A stretch of 64,000 bases of DNA. Source: a bacterium A37T11 (GTDB taxonomy: Bacteria > Bacteroidota > Bacteroidia > Sphingobacteriales > Sphingobacteriaceae). Positions 13,916 to 37,788 of this stretch are shown here, one piece after another (position 1 is the first letter of the stretch; each line of letters begins with the position of its first letter). A model generated the notes under the pieces. It searched no databases. It worked only from the letters and a program-made list of their open reading frames with translations, and was not told the origin of the DNA. The stretch spans positions 124,001 to 188,000 of the forward strand of contig FOBR01000002.1 of assembly GCA_900109895.1 (NCBI GenBank), in the 5' to 3' direction. Both the position numbers and the translations under genes were made by a program.

Positions 13916-14272
13916 ATGATGTCAATTAACGCAAGCATTATCCAACAGTTGCTCGTAGAGGTTCGCGAGATACGCATCCTCATCCGTGAGCACTACGTGC
14001 CACAACCCCTGCGGGAAATCAAGATTCCCCAGCATGCTGACCCTTCCTGGGTTATGCAGCAACTGGGCATTAGCCGCACCACCTTTTATGAAAAGGTGCG
14101 CAACATCCTTTTACATCCAACGCTCCGCATCGGCAACCGCGATTACTACGACCGCCAGGAAGTCTATCAGCTGTTGCAGCGCCGCAAAGAAGATCGCTTT
14201 ACGTACAAAATGATGTCCGTAAAAGCCATGGAGGAGCGCCTCCGGGAGGAAGAATCAAGGGCTTCAGCCTAA
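13916..14272 (+). CDS. Helix-turn-helix DNA-binding protein, excisionase/MerR-like
   Basis: A 118-residue protein with a short N-terminal amphipathic helix (SIIQQLLVEVREIRILIREH) and a winged-HTH-like centre at about residues 45-85 (PSWVMQQLGISRTTFYEKV, then IGNRDYYDRQEVYQLL), as in MerR/excisionase-type proteins that accompany mobile elements in Bacteroidota. The C-terminal tail is highly charged. A start at the first of two ATG codons (13916 or 13919) is arbitrary. A strong terminator follows at 14300. It may regulate or help excise a mobile element, but no recombinase is present in the window. Confidence 0.65.
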   Translation: MMSINASIIQQLLVEVREIRILIREHYVPQPLREIKIPQHADPSWVMQQLGISRTTFYEKVRNILLHPTLRIGNRDYYDRQEVYQLLQRRKEDRFTYKMMSVKAMEERLREEESRASA

Positions 14273-14299
14273 AAATTTGCCGTTTTGTAGTACCCATTT

Positions 14300-14330
14300 G
14301 CCCCAACCTGATACCAGGCCGGGGCATTTT
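14300..14330 (+). terminator. Rho-independent terminator after the HTH gene
   Basis: GCCCCAACCTG and CCAGGCCGGGGC form a GC-rich hairpin followed by ATTTTGG. Confidence 0.65.
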
Positions 14331-14793
14331 GGTTTTTGGGAATGCAGATTGTATGGATGGGATAGTGATTTTTGATTGATTTATTGTTTTTTGTATAGCT
14401 GGATGCTGTTCCCATCGTCGGGCTTATGGCATTTTAGGACCACATTTGGGCCGCTATTTTTGAAACGGAATAAATTGGATCTAGTTTGGAAAGCCTTGGT
14501 ATTATGTTGGCTTTGAGTTGTGCACAATAGACAAAAAGCCCATAAGTTCTAAGCCAACTTGATAGCGATACGATATAAGCATGGCCATTTGTACCACTTA
14601 ATCTGCTAGTATTGATAGAAACTGAAACCAATTAGCCGTAACAATAAACGTGAAAACTGGTACGCAGCATCCTACTTTGTATTAAAAACTGTTTGCATTT
14701 GTTCATTGATTTTCAATAACTTAATATCGTACTTACCTTTGCACTACCCAATCAAACAAAGGGATTTTAAGGTTCATATAACAAACAAAAGCA
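14331..14793. other. Intergenic stretch without a recognisable gene
   Basis: No supported coding frame is seen on either strand. The frames present are short and carry no motif. The right end holds a candidate -7 element (TACCTTTG, 14734-14741) for the next gene. Confidence 0.5.
14734..14741 (+). promoter_or_regulatory. Candidate -7 element for the lysis-like cassette
   Basis: TACCTTTG matches TAnnTTTG and lies 53 bases before the ATG at 14794. A TTG at 14706 is a little too far upstream (25-base spacer) to count as a good -33. Confidence 0.4.
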
Positions 14794-15168
14794 ATGGTAA
14801 CCACACAATTTATCAAACTCCTGCCGGAGGATGTGCCGGCAGTAAAAGAATGGCCGCAATGGCTGCGAAAGTTTCCCTGGATGATCGGCTGGCTTCCGGT
14901 CTTTATGCTGGTTTATCTGTGGTCGGGCCCCCTGCTGCGCTATTGGGATGCAACGGTATCCGTACCCGATGTGGGCACACTGGTATTCCTGCCGCTGGCA
15001 GCATTTTTCGGCCTGTCTTTTTATGGCTTAGCCTGGGTGCTTAGCCAGCAGCTCATTCCCGTTCACGTTAACCAACTAACCCCATGGCAACAATGCATGC
15101 ATTACACCACTACGTTTTTCTTATGCTTCTTTGGTTTTATCCTGGTACTGGCCGTGATGCTATCCTGA
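14794..15168 (+). CDS. Small three-TM membrane protein, holin-like
   Basis: A 124-residue protein with three predicted membrane segments (about residues 29-48, 64-88 and 106-123) and a short charged N-terminus, the layout of class I holins. Its stop overlaps the start of the next gene (TGATG at 15166-15170), a cysteine peptidoglycan-hydrolase-like protein. No sequence family is recognised. Holin is inferred from topology, size and the coupled hydrolase; a simple small membrane protein cannot be excluded. It is the first gene of a four-gene run (14794-16923) with no phage head or tail genes around it. Confidence 0.5.
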   Translation: MVTTQFIKLLPEDVPAVKEWPQWLRKFPWMIGWLPVFMLVYLWSGPLLRYWDATVSVPDVGTLVFLPLAAFFGLSFYGLAWVLSQQLIPVHVNQLTPWQQCMHYTTTFFLCFFGFILVLAVMLS

Positions 15169-15680
15169 TGAAAAACCTTGCGTCTCCGTCCAATCGCCAA
15201 ACCCTCCGCATCCTCTATACTGCCGAACTCGGCGTGCGAGAAGCCACAGGCCTTAATGACGGGCCGAGGGTAGAGGAATACCAGCACTATTGCGGGGTAG
15301 GCAAGGGCAGCAATTGGTGCAGTGCCTTCGTATGCTGGTGCCTAGGCCAGACCAGGCTGGCAAACCCCAAGAACCCCTGGGCCCCGGCTTTGTTTCCCGC
15401 AAAAAGAATAGTTTGGAACAGAAACCCACTTCCCGAAAAGAAGTTGTATGCTATGCAGGAACGTACAACTTATAACGTACAACGTAAAACTCCTTTACCA
15501 GGAGACGTATTCGGCCTCTATTTCCCCGAACTGAAACGCATCGGCCACTGTGGTTTCATTGACCAATGCGACGGCAAATGGATAACTACGGTTGAAGGCA
15601 ACAGCAACAACGCCGTGATCCGCAAACGGCGACTGGTATCCACCATTTATCAAATAGCGAACTGGGTAGACCCTATGTAA
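15168..15680 (+). CDS. CHAP/NlpC-like cysteine peptidoglycan hydrolase (TIGR02594 type)
   Basis: A 170-residue protein with the catalytic cysteine motif NWCSAFVCWCLGQ at about residues 46-58 and a later GHCGFIDQC block at about 127-135 supplying the histidine, as in TIGR02594-type amidases/endopeptidases found in phages and phage-like islands. It has no signal peptide, as expected for an endolysin released by a holin. The start at 15168 is preferred because it overlaps the previous stop by one base. Residues 98-112 (YAMQERTTYNVQRKT) look inserted before PLPGDVFGL; the DNA there contains a direct repeat of ACGTACAAC (15461 and 15475). Confidence 0.7.
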   Translation: MKNLASPSNRQTLRILYTAELGVREATGLNDGPRVEEYQHYCGVGKGSNWCSAFVCWCLGQTRLANPKNPWAPALFPAKRIVWNRNPLPEKKLYAMQERTTYNVQRKTPLPGDVFGLYFPELKRIGHCGFIDQCDGKWITTVEGNSNNAVIRKRRLVSTIYQIANWVDPM

Positions 15681-15734
15681 TGTTAACCAGTAACTTTTAC
15701 TTTTTCCTTTAACTATTTAATATTTCCTTAAACA

Positions 15735-16367
15735 ATGGCAAACCGAATAGCCCAAGGTGGCTTTAAACAATTCAGAGACAACGACCTGTTAAACCAAGGC
15801 GGGACGATCGTGACGGCAATGACCGGCAATGCGAATTTTCCGAACCCGGTACCGGCACTGGCCGATGTACAGGCCGCAGTGGAAGATTTCCGGGTTAAAC
15901 TGGAGGCCTCCAGCCGAAAGGGCAGCCCACTGGAGACGGCCTTAAAGAACGAAAGTCGGGAGGCATTGGTGAAATTATTAAAACAACTGGCGTTTTACGT
16001 CAATACCGTAGCCGACGGATCCCTGTCATTGGTACTCAGCTCAGGTTTCCCGGTCACTTCACTGCCATCTAAACCAAGCGTGCCACCCATCCCCACTCGC
16101 ATTAAACTTAGTGACTGGATTCAAAGTGGGCAGGTAAGGCTTAATTTTGACTCCATGCCCGGAGCGTGGATGTATGAGTACACCTTTACGAAAGATCTGG
16201 ACGAACAGGGCACGCCCATCTATAGTAATTCCTTTACCACCACCAAAAGCAGCGGCAACGTCCTGGCGCCGCTCATGCCAGGACTAACTTACTACATCAA
16301 GGTAAGGTCCAGGAATGGGCAGGGGGTGAGTGACTGGACTACGCCCGAGAGCATTATCGCCAGGTAA
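15735..16367 (+). CDS. Fibronectin type III protein without signal peptide (copy 1)
   Basis: A 210-residue protein with a helical N-terminal half (FRDNDLLNQGGTIVTAM, then VEDFRVKLEASSRKGSP) and one FnIII-like domain at about residues 120-208, ending GLTYYIKVRSRNGQGVSDW. There is no export signal. It is clearly related along its whole length to the protein at 37159-37788 (shared ASRKGSP, LLKQ(L/V)AFYVN, (I/V)IPGL-Y-(I/V)-VR-RNG). Its place behind a hydrolase gene here, and behind DUF5675 in the other copy, suggests a function tied to phage-like or cell-wall proteins. Virion decoration or binding to a surface polysaccharide are guesses. Confidence 0.7.
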   Translation: MANRIAQGGFKQFRDNDLLNQGGTIVTAMTGNANFPNPVPALADVQAAVEDFRVKLEASSRKGSPLETALKNESREALVKLLKQLAFYVNTVADGSLSLVLSSGFPVTSLPSKPSVPPIPTRIKLSDWIQSGQVRLNFDSMPGAWMYEYTFTKDLDEQGTPIYSNSFTTTKSSGNVLAPLMPGLTYYIKVRSRNGQGVSDWTTPESIIAR

Positions 16368-16443
16368 GAGGTTAAAAATGGTTCTCCTCCGGGCTGCTAG
16401 GACCGTGGCCCGGAGGGAATACCTATTTACTAAAATTGAATGC

Positions 16444-16923
16444 ATGAAACTATACCAACTCATTATACCTGCCATTTTAGCAAGCTGCAGTACGAAAAAA
16501 CAGCTTCATCAAACTATAAAGGAGAGCAGTACTGTTGACAGCACCAGCTATCAGCAAAACGACAGCAGCTTTTATCATCTAAGGCAGCAAGGTCTATGGG
16601 TCAGTCAGGAGCAAACCCAAGAACTTACCCGGATCATGCCCAAAGGACTTTTCACCTATTCCCCAGACAGCGGTTTCCGCGGTGAAGCCGAAGAGATCCG
16701 GATATTTCGCCAGGCGGATAAAAAACAGCGACAAGCAGACAGCAGCAGTTTAAATGCCGGTTCTTTAACCCATGCCAGCCTTAAGCAAATTCAAAGCAGT
16801 AATGTAAAAAACAGCCAAATTGATGAACAAAAAAGTACCAATGGCTTTTCCTGGAAGTTTTGGTCTACTGGGATTCTTTTATTGATTGTTTTGGTAGTAG
16901 TGGTTAGGTTGAAGTATATTTAG
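16444..16923 (+). CDS. Lipoprotein with C-terminal TM, unimolecular-spanin-like
   Basis: From the ATG at 16444 the 159-residue product has a lipoprotein signal (IIPAILASC, Cys at about residue 16), a long polar, Ser/Gln-rich periplasmic part and a single C-terminal membrane segment (about 137-156, ILLLIVLVVVVRL). An outer-membrane lipid anchor plus an inner-membrane anchor in one chain is the layout of u-spanins such as T1 gp11, which join the two membranes at lysis. No sequence motif proves it. An upstream in-frame ATG at 16330 lies inside the previous gene and is rejected because it would hide the signal peptide. Confidence 0.5.
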   Translation: MKLYQLIIPAILASCSTKKQLHQTIKESSTVDSTSYQQNDSSFYHLRQQGLWVSQEQTQELTRIMPKGLFTYSPDSGFRGEAEEIRIFRQADKKQRQADSSSLNAGSLTHASLKQIQSSNVKNSQIDEQKSTNGFSWKFWSTGILLLIVLVVVVRLKYI

Positions 16924-33706: not shown

Positions 33707-34102
33707 TTAAAGTTTCTCCACAACACCAAGTGGTAAGTTTAAACTAGATGATATAACATTTAATTCAACACCTGATTTCTTTAACGTTCTGGCACCTTCC
33801 AGTTTTTCAGCTTCTGCTCTGGCCTGTAGTTTGGCTATTTCCTGATCAGCCTTAGCACGTTCTTCACGACGACCCTGTTCCAAGCCTTTCTCCAAGCCTT
33901 GTTTTAGCTTAAAATCCAGGGCATTTTGATTATCCCATCGCTTTTGTAATTCCGTATCGTACAACATCCTTTCTTCGTCCGTTAAGTTATTATATTCAGC
34001 AATATTAAACAACCGCTTAAAAACAGGTTTGTTAAGCACCCTTGGTAATTTTTTGAGCTTACTCAGGTGCCGTAAAGAATAGAGCCAGTCGTCAAGATCT
34101 GT
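33707..34102 (-). pseudogene. Rpn-family (PD-(D/E)XK) protein, C-terminal remnant
   Basis: From a TAA at 34103-34105 the frame reads the last ~131 residues of the Rpn-type protein encoded next door (34140-34847): DWLYSLRHLSKLKKLPRVLN, then EYNNLTDEERMLYDTELQ, the Gln/Arg-rich coiled part and a C-terminal LPLGVVEKL. The first codons after the stop are identical to the neighbour, so it is a tandem duplicate cut at its 5' end. Nothing of the catalytic domain remains. An in-frame GTG at 34039 could start a 110-residue product, but expression is doubtful. Confidence 0.8.
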
Positions 34103-34139
34103 TTACGACAGATGATTTGTATTATGTAGATAAATACAC

Positions 34140-34847
34140 TTAAAGTTTCTCCACAACATCAAGTGGAAGGTGAAACTTCTCGGCTATTTGTAGATTACTA
34201 AGTACGCCTAATTTTTTAATGGAACTGGCAGTTTCCAGTTTTTCAGCCTCTGCCTTTAGTTTATCAGCTTCCGCTCTGGCCTTTAGTTTGGCTATTTCCT
34301 GATCAGCCTTAGCACGTTCTTCACGACGACCCTGTTCCAAGCCCTGTTCCAAGCCTTGTTTTAGCTTAAAATCCAGGGCGTTTTGATTATCCCATCGCTT
34401 TTGTAATTCCGTATCGTACAACATCCTTTCTTCGTCCGTTAAGTTATTATATTCAGCAATATTAAACAACCGCTTAAAAACAGGTTTGTTAAGCACCCTT
34501 GGTAATTTTTTGAGCTTACTCAGGTGCCGCAAAGAATAGAGCCAGTCGTCAAGATCTGTTTCCAATTCTTCCTCCGTTTTTACAAAATTAATTAACTCGA
34601 TGTAAATATAACCTAATTTTTCGTAAAAAACTTCCTTCGTTTCCCGATCCATCAGGCAAATGTCGTGGATATAGTGCTCCGGAACGCTATTTGGCATCGT
34701 AAAATTATCCAGCAACGCCACCAGATACACCTCCTTGAGGTTATAGTTCCAGATTTTCATCCGACCCTTAGGAGCCTGAAAACTGATTTGACGAGAAGTG
34801 TAAACCACAGACCTTACCTTGAAAAATTCCTGCAGGGCCCGCTGCAT
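34140..34847 (-). pseudogene. Rpn-family (PD-(D/E)XK) protein, N-terminally truncated
   Basis: A 235-residue frame that begins in the middle of the family's conserved core (MQRALQEFFKVRSVVYTSRQ corresponds to the usual ..EMQ....FKDR..YY.. segment) and continues through KGRMKIWNYNLKEVYLVALLDNF to the coiled-coil tail. The N-terminal ~100 residues with the first catalytic acid are missing, and a stop lies two codons upstream. The break coincides with a small inverted repeat TAACTC/GAGTTA (34850-34868) that looks like a shrunken member of the local hairpin family. Repeated KAEAEKLE-type units lengthen its tail compared with the remnant downstream. Confidence 0.8.
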
Positions 34848-36504: not shown

Positions 36505-36797
36505 CTCACTCAAAATTAACTCAGCCGGTCAATCGAACGGCATGGGGATATTAGCGCAGCGGTTTTCCCCGCCGTGAGATGACCGGCTGAGTTATTGGAT
36601 CATTATCTGACTAAATTAACCCGCCATGTATGTATTTCTTCGCGCGAAACGCCATACGCGCTGATTACGGAAGGCTTTCGTTTTTTGTTCCGGACCTTTG
36701 TTCTATGTATTACAAAAAGGAGTGGCTCCCACGATGATGGAGCTTCAATTGATCCGGACGTATTTTCCGGATGGGACAAATGGCAGGCTGGTGTACC
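36505..36797 (+). repeat. Direct repeat, copy B
   Basis: The partner of 34906-35213: hairpin element, shared leader and the 5' end of the intact DUF5675 gene. Differences cluster just after the hairpin (36596-36615). Confidence 0.8.
36517..36594. repeat. Hairpin-repeat family, copy B
   Basis: Perfect 15-bp arms TAACTCAGCCGGTCA (36517-36531) and TGACCGGCTGAGTTA (36580-36594) around a 48-base centre shared with copy A. Confidence 0.9.
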
Positions 36798-37132
36798 GAA
36801 ATAACCAGGTCTGCGAAACGATCGAACTGCCATGGCGAAATAACAAGCGTCAGGTAAGCTGTATTCCAGAAGGGCGGTACCGCCTGGTGCGCAAAATGCA
36901 CTACAAGAATGGTGAACAGCTGGCCGTGCAGAACGTGCCCGGAAGGGAGGCTATTTTACTACACCCGGGCAATATAGCGTTCAGGGACTTACAAGGCTGT
37001 ATCGCTCCGGTGACAAAATGTACGGCGCCGGGAAAAGGAAGCTACAGCCGCATAGCACTTGATCGTTTAAAAGAATTGGTGTACCCGGTACTGGCCGGAG
37101 GCGAAGAAGTATACCTTATTATCAGAAGTTAA
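36734..37132 (+). CDS. DUF5675-family protein
   Basis: A 132-residue protein: RTYFPDGTNGRLVY, then CETIELPWRNNKRQVSCIPE, GRYRLVRKMHYKNGEQLAV, AILLHPGNIAFRDLQGCIAP and a LVYPVLAGGEEVYLIIRS end. DUF5675 proteins occur in phages, prophages and phage-like islands, usually near lysis or structural genes; the central HPGN..D..GCI segment suggests an L,D-transpeptidase-like or wall-related fold, which is an inference. No signal peptide. The FnIII gene starts 26 bp downstream and is probably co-transcribed. Confidence 0.75.
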   Translation: MMELQLIRTYFPDGTNGRLVYRNNQVCETIELPWRNNKRQVSCIPEGRYRLVRKMHYKNGEQLAVQNVPGREAILLHPGNIAFRDLQGCIAPVTKCTAPGKGSYSRIALDRLKELVYPVLAGGEEVYLIIRS

Positions 37133-37158
37133 AAATTAAAAAGAACATTAAAAAAAGA

Positions 37159-37788
37159 ATGAATCGATTTGTGATCAGTGGTTTTAAACGATTTAATGAC
37201 CACCAATTTTCGACAATTGCAGGTACAGTAACGCTGGCGATGACAAATAATATTTATTTTACGGATCCGGTACCCGCGATCACAGTTGTCCAGACGGCAT
37301 TGGATGATTATCGCCTTAAGCTGGAGCTGGCCAGTAGGAAGGGCAGCCCTTATGACACGGAGGAGAAGAATGCCAGCCGGGTGGTGTTAGAAGAATTATT
37401 GAAGCAGGTGGCTTTTTATGTGAACATTACCGCTAAAGGGCAGGTTAATTTATTACTAAGCTCTGGCTTGCCCCTAAATGAGCTACCCAGCTCATTGAAA
37501 GAACCAGGAACACCTGTTAACATCCGCCTCTCAGACGGAAGGTTGAGCGGCCAGATCAAGCTCGATTTTAAAGCGGTGAAGGATGCCTGGGAGTATGAGT
37601 ACCAGGTGAGCCATGAGCTGGATGAGAACAAAGCTCCAATTTGGGCCGATCCGGTATCAACCACAACGTCGCGCGGTAACATCATTGTGCCGGTAATTCC
37701 GGGCTTGGTATACCGGGTGCGCGTGCGTGCCCGCAATGGCCGTGGCCTTGGCGACTGGAGTGAGCCGGTGCAGATCATTGCCAGGTAG
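37159..37788 (+). CDS. Fibronectin type III protein without signal peptide (copy 2)
   Basis: A 209-residue protein homologous along its length to the one at 15735-16367: a helical N-terminal half with FKRFNDHQFSTIAGTVTLAM and LASRKGSP, then one FnIII domain at about residues 118-205 ending PGLVYRVRVRARNGRGLGDW. No signal peptide or TM. Here it follows DUF5675, whereas copy 1 follows a peptidoglycan hydrolase, so the FnIII protein is the constant member of two phage-like gene groups. Confidence 0.72.
   Translation: MNRFVISGFKRFNDHQFSTIAGTVTLAMTNNIYFTDPVPAITVVQTALDDYRLKLELASRKGSPYDTEEKNASRVVLEELLKQVAFYVNITAKGQVNLLLSSGLPLNELPSSLKEPGTPVNIRLSDGRLSGQIKLDFKAVKDAWEYEYQVSHELDENKAPIWADPVSTTTSRGNIIVPVIPGLVYRVRVRARNGRGLGDWSEPVQIIAR

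What the first reader, a model, noticed from the sequence alone, without database searches (positions are those of the whole stretch)
14794..16923. Lysis-like cassette without a phage
In order and with coupled or close spacing: a three-TM holin-like protein, a cysteine peptidoglycan hydrolase without signal peptide, an FnIII protein without signal peptide, and a lipoprotein with a C-terminal TM, the layout of a unimolecular spanin. These are the parts needed to open inner membrane, wall and outer membrane, yet no capsid, tail, terminase or integrase gene is in the window. It could be a domesticated programmed-release or contractile-particle-release device, or what is left of a prophage.
Basis: partly seen in the sequence, partly recalled or inferred. 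Interest (0 to 1): 0.7.

Follow-up and report, generated by a model that had tools for sequence, protein, structure and literature searches.

The report
Multicopy phage-derived lysis-and-cargo operon
The four genes belong to a conserved operon, present about 19 times in this one bacterium and in a third of the genomes sampled from its family, in which a lysis kit taken from phages sits beside a small protein with no export signal, so it probably lets a few cells open themselves to release that protein.

Summary
The cassette is real, and it is neither a lone oddity nor a prophage remnant. The host genome carries 19 intact CHAP copies; 17 loci have the whole order 3TM > CHAP > FnIII > lipoprotein. 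104 of 301 family genomes carry the CHAP gene. In 33 of 40 loci sampled from other genera it lies beside a cargo gene (FnIII or DUF6266), with 3TM and lipoprotein genes usually present; only 2 of 40 lie among phage structural genes. The 3TM-CHAP-lipoprotein trio is a true Bacteroidota-phage lysis module, with the same ~82-nt holin/endolysin overlap. All families are under purifying selection (omega 0.10-0.21). Correction: the hydrolase starts at 15084, inside the 3TM gene, with an N-terminal hydrophobic segment. FnIII and DUF6266 are unrelated in sequence but both are ~210 aa, signal-less, with a C-terminal FN3 fold. DUF6266 also sits beside a non-homologous lysis trio in two further contigs. 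Best reading: a host-controlled, type-10-secretion-like release device, amplified as paralogues. Unexpected: FnIII/DUF6266 genes are preceded by locus-specific, helically phased repeat arrays (21-bp dyads or ~11-bp repeats), not detectable at the window copy. Lysis, release and the array-binding protein are inferred, not shown.

The parts
13916..14272 (+). small HTH regulator (118 aa) upstream of the operon
   Evidence: Weak HTH_17 match, 8.8e-4; relatives upstream of several own copies (9 loci incl. the window) and of many cassettes in other genera
14273..14793 (.). 521-bp gap where other copies carry the 21-bp dyad array; no significant 21-bp periodicity in this copy
   Evidence: lag-21 z=1.1, p=0.14; strong arrays in the same position at other loci
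14734..14741 (+). TACCTTTG, Bacteroidetes-type -7 box (TAnnTTTG), 60 bp before the 3TM start codon
   Evidence: Sequence; the box is enriched in this region, 20/27 other-genus units vs 2.0 expected, 6/20 own vs 1.6
14794..15168 (+). three-TM holin-like protein (124 aa)
   Evidence: Alignment A3; homologous to the gene before CHAP in Bacteroidota phage lysis modules
15084..15680 (+). CHAP peptidoglycan hydrolase (198 aa) with an N-terminal hydrophobic segment (possible signal-arrest-release or signal peptide); overlaps the 3TM gene by 85 nt
   Evidence: Pfam CHAP 5.8e-8; conserved overlap start in 20/20 own copies with a 3TM neighbour; invariant C79 and H155
15735..16367 (+). signal-less FnIII protein (210 aa): helical N-terminal half plus C-terminal FN3 domain; presumed cargo
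   Evidence: Alignment A1; AF2 pLDDT 86.5; FN3 fold Z 13.8, rmsd 1.5 over 88 residues
16444..16923 (+). lipoprotein with C-terminal TM (159 aa), laid out like a unimolecular spanin
   Evidence: LASC lipobox, invariant Cys; lipobox 17/18 and C-terminal TM 17/18 own copies; weak match to a spanin PHROG, 0.008
36698..37132 (+). DUF5675 protein of a second, separate unit
   Evidence: Pfam DUF5675 3.2e-28
37159..37788 (+). second FnIII cargo paralogue, 26 bp after DUF5675, without the 3TM/CHAP/lipoprotein trio
   Evidence: A1 member; A1 search; Pfam fn3 1e-5

Best explanation
This is one of about 19 paralogous copies of a host-owned release device built from a phage lysis module. SHOWN by sequence: the trio 3TM + CHAP + TM-lipoprotein is homologous to lysis modules inside Bacteroidota phages, including the ~82-nt gene overlap; outside phages it is kept as an operon with one of two alternative signal-less cargo proteins (FnIII or DUF6266), both with a C-terminal FN3 fold, and often a small HTH regulator; it is under purifying selection. 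INFERRED mechanism: an upstream regulator switches the operon on in some cells, cargo and lysis proteins build up, the 3TM holin depolarises or opens the inner membrane and releases or activates the membrane-tethered CHAP hydrolase, the wall is cut, and the lipoprotein with C-terminal TM fuses inner and outer membranes (u-spanin action), so the cytoplasmic cargo leaves by lysis, as in type 10 secretion systems. NOT SHOWN: lysis, release, what the cargo does outside, and what triggers the operon.
For: 19 intact CHAP copies and 17 complete four-gene cassettes in one genome. 104/301 family genomes, 16/25 genera. 33/40 other-genus loci with a cargo gene adjacent, 2/40 among phage structural genes. 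The trio with the same overlap occurs inside phage contigs. Catalytic residues, lipobox and C-terminal TM are kept in nearly all own copies. Omega 0.10-0.21 for all five families. Two unrelated cargo families share size, lack of a visible signal peptide and a C-terminal FN3 fold. DUF6266 sits beside a different lysis trio, Phage_holin_4_1 + endolysin-like + TM-lipoprotein, in two contigs. T10SS precedent: phage-derived holin/hydrolase with or without spanins, cargo in the same operon, expression in a subpopulation (PMC13284979, PMC10847048).
Against: FnIII and DUF6266 genes also occur without this trio: about 6 of 25 own FnIII copies have none, as do most distant genomes, so release by this trio cannot be their only function. 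No toxin or enzyme domain was found in the cargo. Regulators differ from copy to copy. Some 19 lysis operons per genome would be dangerous unless tightly silenced. Linkage could also reflect control of lysis by the FnIII protein rather than cargo release.
Confidence: 0.58

Rival explanations
1. FnIII and DUF6266 are not cargo but array-binding proteins that control the operon: each binds its own helically phased array and silences or licenses a lysis module used as altruistic or developmental autolysis.
For: The array travels with the FnIII/DUF6266 gene even where no HTH and no lysis genes exist (most of 16 distant loci), and its period follows the cargo family (21 vs ~11 bp). DUF6266 N-terminal half is strongly basic, +8.3. 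Array consensus is shared between the closest orthologue pairs.
Against: FnIII N-terminal half is not basic. Array-FnIII similarity is weak overall (Mantel r=0.11, p=0.054) and, in the 8 units with an HTH, array-FnIII and array-HTH similarity are comparable (0.54 vs 0.44). A regulator with no target genes in solitary units is odd.
Confidence: 0.2
2. Prophage remnants: isolated lysis genes left by degraded phages.
For: The trio is homologous to phage lysis modules; 2 of 40 other-genus copies sit in prophage-like blocks.
Against: 33/40 stand beside a conserved non-phage cargo gene; purifying selection; 17 complete copies in one genome; FnIII not found in phage records or, by one query, in IMG/VR, DUF6266 not found in phage records.
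Confidence: 0.06
3. Non-lytic envelope device: membrane-anchored CHAP plus TM-lipoprotein remodel the wall locally, for example for installing nearby SusC/SusD transporters.
For: 17 of 21 own cassettes lie within 10 kb of a susD gene vs 8.4 expected, p=0.0002.
Against: No enrichment within 5 kb (5 vs 5.3); orientation and partner operon vary; both may simply lie in variable chromosome regions; the same trio sits in phage lysis position.
Confidence: 0.1
4. Anti-phage suicide system: the operon senses infection and lyses the cell early.
For: Lysis module, multicopy, diversified regulators (inference).
Against: No PADLOC match except a weak HTH match; cargo is conserved rather than sensor-like; no defence-island neighbours noted in the loci inspected.
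Confidence: 0.06

Closest known systems
Type 10 secretion systems (Serratia chiWXYZ, Yersinia entomophaga YenLC, Salmonella systems)
   Same: Phage-derived holin + peptidoglycan hydrolase (+ spanin in some) outside a phage, linked to cargo and a dedicated regulator (PMC13284979, PMC10847048)
   Different: Holin, CHAP hydrolase, single-protein spanin layout and cargo belong to other families; many paralogous copies per genome; cargo has no recognised toxin or chitinase domain; no report of T10SS in Bacteroidota turned up in the literature searched
Lysis modules of Bacteroidota phages in IMG/VR (e.g. loci L097, L099, L104, L109, L117)
   Same: Homologous 3TM and CHAP (and often TM-lipoprotein), same order and mostly the same ~79-82-nt overlap
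   Different: There they sit among terminase, capsid and tail-like genes; here they sit with HTH and FnIII/DUF6266 and no phage genes
DUF6266 (PF19781) and DUF5675 (PF18925) families
   Same: DUF6266 takes the place of FnIII as the operon's cargo in most genera and once in this genome; DUF5675 accompanies other FnIII/DUF6266 units
   Different: Functions unknown; no paper mentioning DUF6266 in the library searched
Helically phased operator or centromere arrays (plasmid iterons; ParR/parC 11-bp repeats; from general knowledge)
   Same: Tandem sites one or two helical turns apart, suited to cooperative protein filaments
   Different: Sequence private to each locus, up to ~25 or more units, attached to FnIII/DUF6266 genes; binding protein unknown

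Membership tests
Type 10 secretion system | Phage-type holin plus peptidoglycan hydrolase outside a phage | tested here: met
   Trio homologous to phage lysis modules; phage structural profiles at only 2/40 other-genus loci. Holin and hydrolase activities themselves are untested
Type 10 secretion system | Spanins (optional in known systems) | tested here: inconclusive
   Lipobox and C-terminal TM in 17/18 own copies; only weak spanin profile matches
Type 10 secretion system | Cargo encoded with the machinery | tested here: inconclusive
   FnIII/DUF6266 co-encoded and conserved; absence of a signal peptide judged by eye; that they are cargo is not shown
Type 10 secretion system | Export of the cargo depends on holin and hydrolase | not testable with these tools
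   Needs induction and knockouts
SAR (signal-arrest-release) endolysin | N-terminal hydrophobic segment on an endolysin | tested here: met
   Hydrophobic start in 19/20 own copies when begun at the overlap ATG
SAR (signal-arrest-release) endolysin | Segment is retained in the membrane and later released | not testable with these tools
   A cleaved signal peptide would look similar
Unimolecular spanin (T1 gp11 type) | Single protein with N-terminal lipoprotein signal and C-terminal TM | tested here: met
   window lipobox LASC and terminal TM
Unimolecular spanin (T1 gp11 type) | Fuses or disrupts the outer membrane during lysis | not testable with these tools
   Needs complementation of a spanin-null phage in a laboratory strain
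Prophage remnant | Linked phage structural or integrase genes in most copies | tested here: not met
   2/40 other-genus loci with phage structural profiles; no capsid/tail/terminase among the window matches listed

The most novel reading that the evidence does not exclude
The core unit is the FnIII or DUF6266 gene plus its private, helically phased DNA array. The protein binds its own array, the borrowed lysis module releases the protein-coated DNA, and the FN3 domain helps it reach recipient cells: a minimal lysis-coupled DNA-spreading element that picks up lysis kits as modules.
Probability: 0.06. Interest if true: 0.95.

Novelty: new variant of a known kind. Interest (0 to 1): 0.75.

Why it matters
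The type 10 secretion systems described in the papers read here are one or two per genome. Here a family of Bacteroidota keeps many paralogous phage-derived lysis operons per chromosome, each with its own cargo and often with a private DNA array. If they work as inferred, programmed lysis is a routine and diversified behaviour in these bacteria, two families of unknown function (this FnIII type and DUF6266) gain a role as released proteins, and the arrays offer a direct way to study how cells keep some 19 lethal operons silent.

Tried and rejected
RNA or DNA hairpins as the meaning of the 21-bp units: rejected, because the two halves vary independently within units (1535 complementary cells vs 1512 expected, z=1.3), which fits dsDNA sites for a dimeric protein. 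Coding heptads: unlikely, because DUF6266 arrays have an ~11-bp period, though arrays in some distant loci do contain open frames on the FnIII strand. FnIII as a phage protein: no match in phages; none in IMG/VR by one single-protein query. FnIII and DUF6266 as homologues: profile comparison negative. Scan of IMG/VR with the FnIII alignment failed for lack of conserved stretches. Array-regulator pairing by Mantel tests: undecided. The fold searches covered the FN3 half only; the N-terminal halves of both cargos were barely tested. The window's own gap shows no significant array.

Full report
Observation. The four ORFs exist as described. CHAP is over the Pfam cut-off; FnIII is weak in Pfam but clear in structure; the lipoprotein has an LASC lipobox and a terminal TM. 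PHROGs give weak endolysin (2.7e-4) and Rz-like spanin (0.008) matches for the hydrolase and the lipoprotein, and a minor-tail match (1.1e-11) for the FN3 part.

Copy number. A tblastn search of the own genome with the CHAP protein returned some 20 diverged copies. Twenty further stretches were fetched and annotated. Seventeen loci, the window included, carry 3TM, CHAP, FnIII and lipoprotein in that order; one lacks the lipoprotein; one has DUF6266 in place of FnIII; others are fragments or contig ends. Profile searches give 25 full-length FnIII, 19 intact CHAP and 21 3TM places, and 24 lipoprotein matches of which several are partial. In a tree, own FnIII copies interleave with those of other genera (9 label changes), so the set is old and exchanged or retained, with some lineage-specific duplication.

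Start of the hydrolase. In the paralogues CHAP starts inside the 3TM gene: an in-frame ATG gives an 82-nt overlap in 17 of 20 own copies, in 28 of 41 other-genus copies, and a 79- or 82-nt overlap in most of the 25 viral modules with a 3TM neighbour by the stricter cut-off. The overlap encodes a hydrophobic N-terminus.

Phage origin. The CHAP profile found 50 IMG/VR loci. A 3TM homologue precedes CHAP in about 30 of them at a lenient cut-off, and terminase-, protease-, capsid- or tail-like genes surround the examples inspected by eye. The trio is thus a genuine Bacteroidota-phage lysis module.

Host operon. CHAP occurs in 104 of 301 genomes of the family (16 of 25 genera) but in only 6 of 296 of a phylum-wide sample at a stricter cut-off. 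Forty loci from other genera were fetched and scanned with profiles of the operon genes and of viral marker clusters made here: 33 have DUF6266 or FnIII next to CHAP, mostly with 3TM and lipoprotein and often with the HTH; 2 show phage structural genes; 5 show neither. Median omega is 0.10-0.21 in all five families.

Cargo. FnIII and DUF6266 occupy the same operon role. They share no detectable sequence similarity, yet both models are an N-terminal part with helices plus a C-terminal FN3 domain (pLDDT 86.5 and 90.9; FN3 Z 13.8 over 88 residues and 12.4 over 94). DUF6266 is in 27 of 61 family genomes, in up to 13 copies, with or without the trio. In two short contigs labelled viral (one of them carries cas1/cas2) DUF6266 is followed by a different trio: Phage_holin_4_1, an endolysin-like protein (phrog_873, 2.9e-39) and a TM-lipoprotein. 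Coupling of one cargo family to non-homologous lysis trios is the best argument for a functional link. Other units carry DUF5675 instead, including a second unit in this window.

Arrays. TRF showed repeats of period 21 bp or multiples upstream of many FnIII genes. In 600 bp upstream of 27 own units, lags 21, 63 and 42 stand out (z 18.9, 15.8, 15.5); in 11 distant FnIII units z is 30 and 26 at lags 42 and 21; in other-genus units, mostly DUF6266, lags 11 and 21 (z 11 and 10). In 535 kb of own sequence, 12 lag-21 segments pass the threshold and none in shuffles; eight loci have a lag-21 or lag-42 segment in the gap upstream of the operon, typically right behind the HTH gene. Units are dyad-symmetric in most arrays (0.7-0.9 vs 0.38 null) and private to each locus; halves vary independently. 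Upstream regions of unrelated genes: 1 of 194; DUF6266 genes: 17 of 26 without and 19 of 38 with the trio. In distant genomes most FnIII genes stand alone with an array. Solitary DUF6266 in other orders: 2 of 10 strong. At the window copy the gap is present but not periodic (p=0.14). A TAnnTTTG promoter box lies about 80 bp before the first gene in other genera, so arrays sit upstream of the promoter.

Reading. I favour a type-10-secretion-like release device (0.58). The main rival is that FnIII/DUF6266 are the array-binding regulators of a self-lysis operon (0.2). Type 10 systems are known for holin plus hydrolase, optional spanins, operon-encoded cargo and, in Yersinia, expression in a subpopulation (PMC13284979, PMC10847048). 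No paper on DUF6266 or on T10SS in Bacteroidota turned up in the library searched, which is not proof of absence.

Noticed in passing
window 36698-37788: A second FnIII paralogue directly behind a DUF5675 gene: another cargo unit with a different partner in the same window.
   Followed up: partly
L010 9999-10484; L014 10178-10700; L020 8193-8681; L022 8703-9090; L025 9949-10283; L026 10662-11223; L238 4681-5207: Arrays of roughly 15-26 mostly dyad-symmetric 21-bp units, sequence private to each locus, upstream of the operon or of solitary FnIII genes.
   Followed up: yes
L224, L228, L199, L221, L216 upstream of DUF6266: DUF6266 genes have ~11-bp-period arrays instead of 21-bp ones; the motif changes in patches along the array.
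   Followed up: partly
L246 290-2253; L247 810-2757: DUF6266 followed by a holin, an endolysin-like protein and a TM-lipoprotein unrelated to the window's trio; L246 also carries cas1 and cas2.
   Followed up: partly
own genome: 17 of 21 cassettes lie within 10 kb of a susD gene (8.4 expected), often beside sigma/FecR/SusCD operons; cause unknown.
   Followed up: partly
window 33707-34847: Fragments of a PD-(D/E)XK family transposase beside the second FnIII unit.
   Followed up: no
L009 2490-5588: A large RHS-repeat protein close to one cassette copy.
   Followed up: no
L027 5508-6035: A degenerate copy in which the CHAP C-terminal part runs into lipoprotein sequence in one frame.
   Followed up: no
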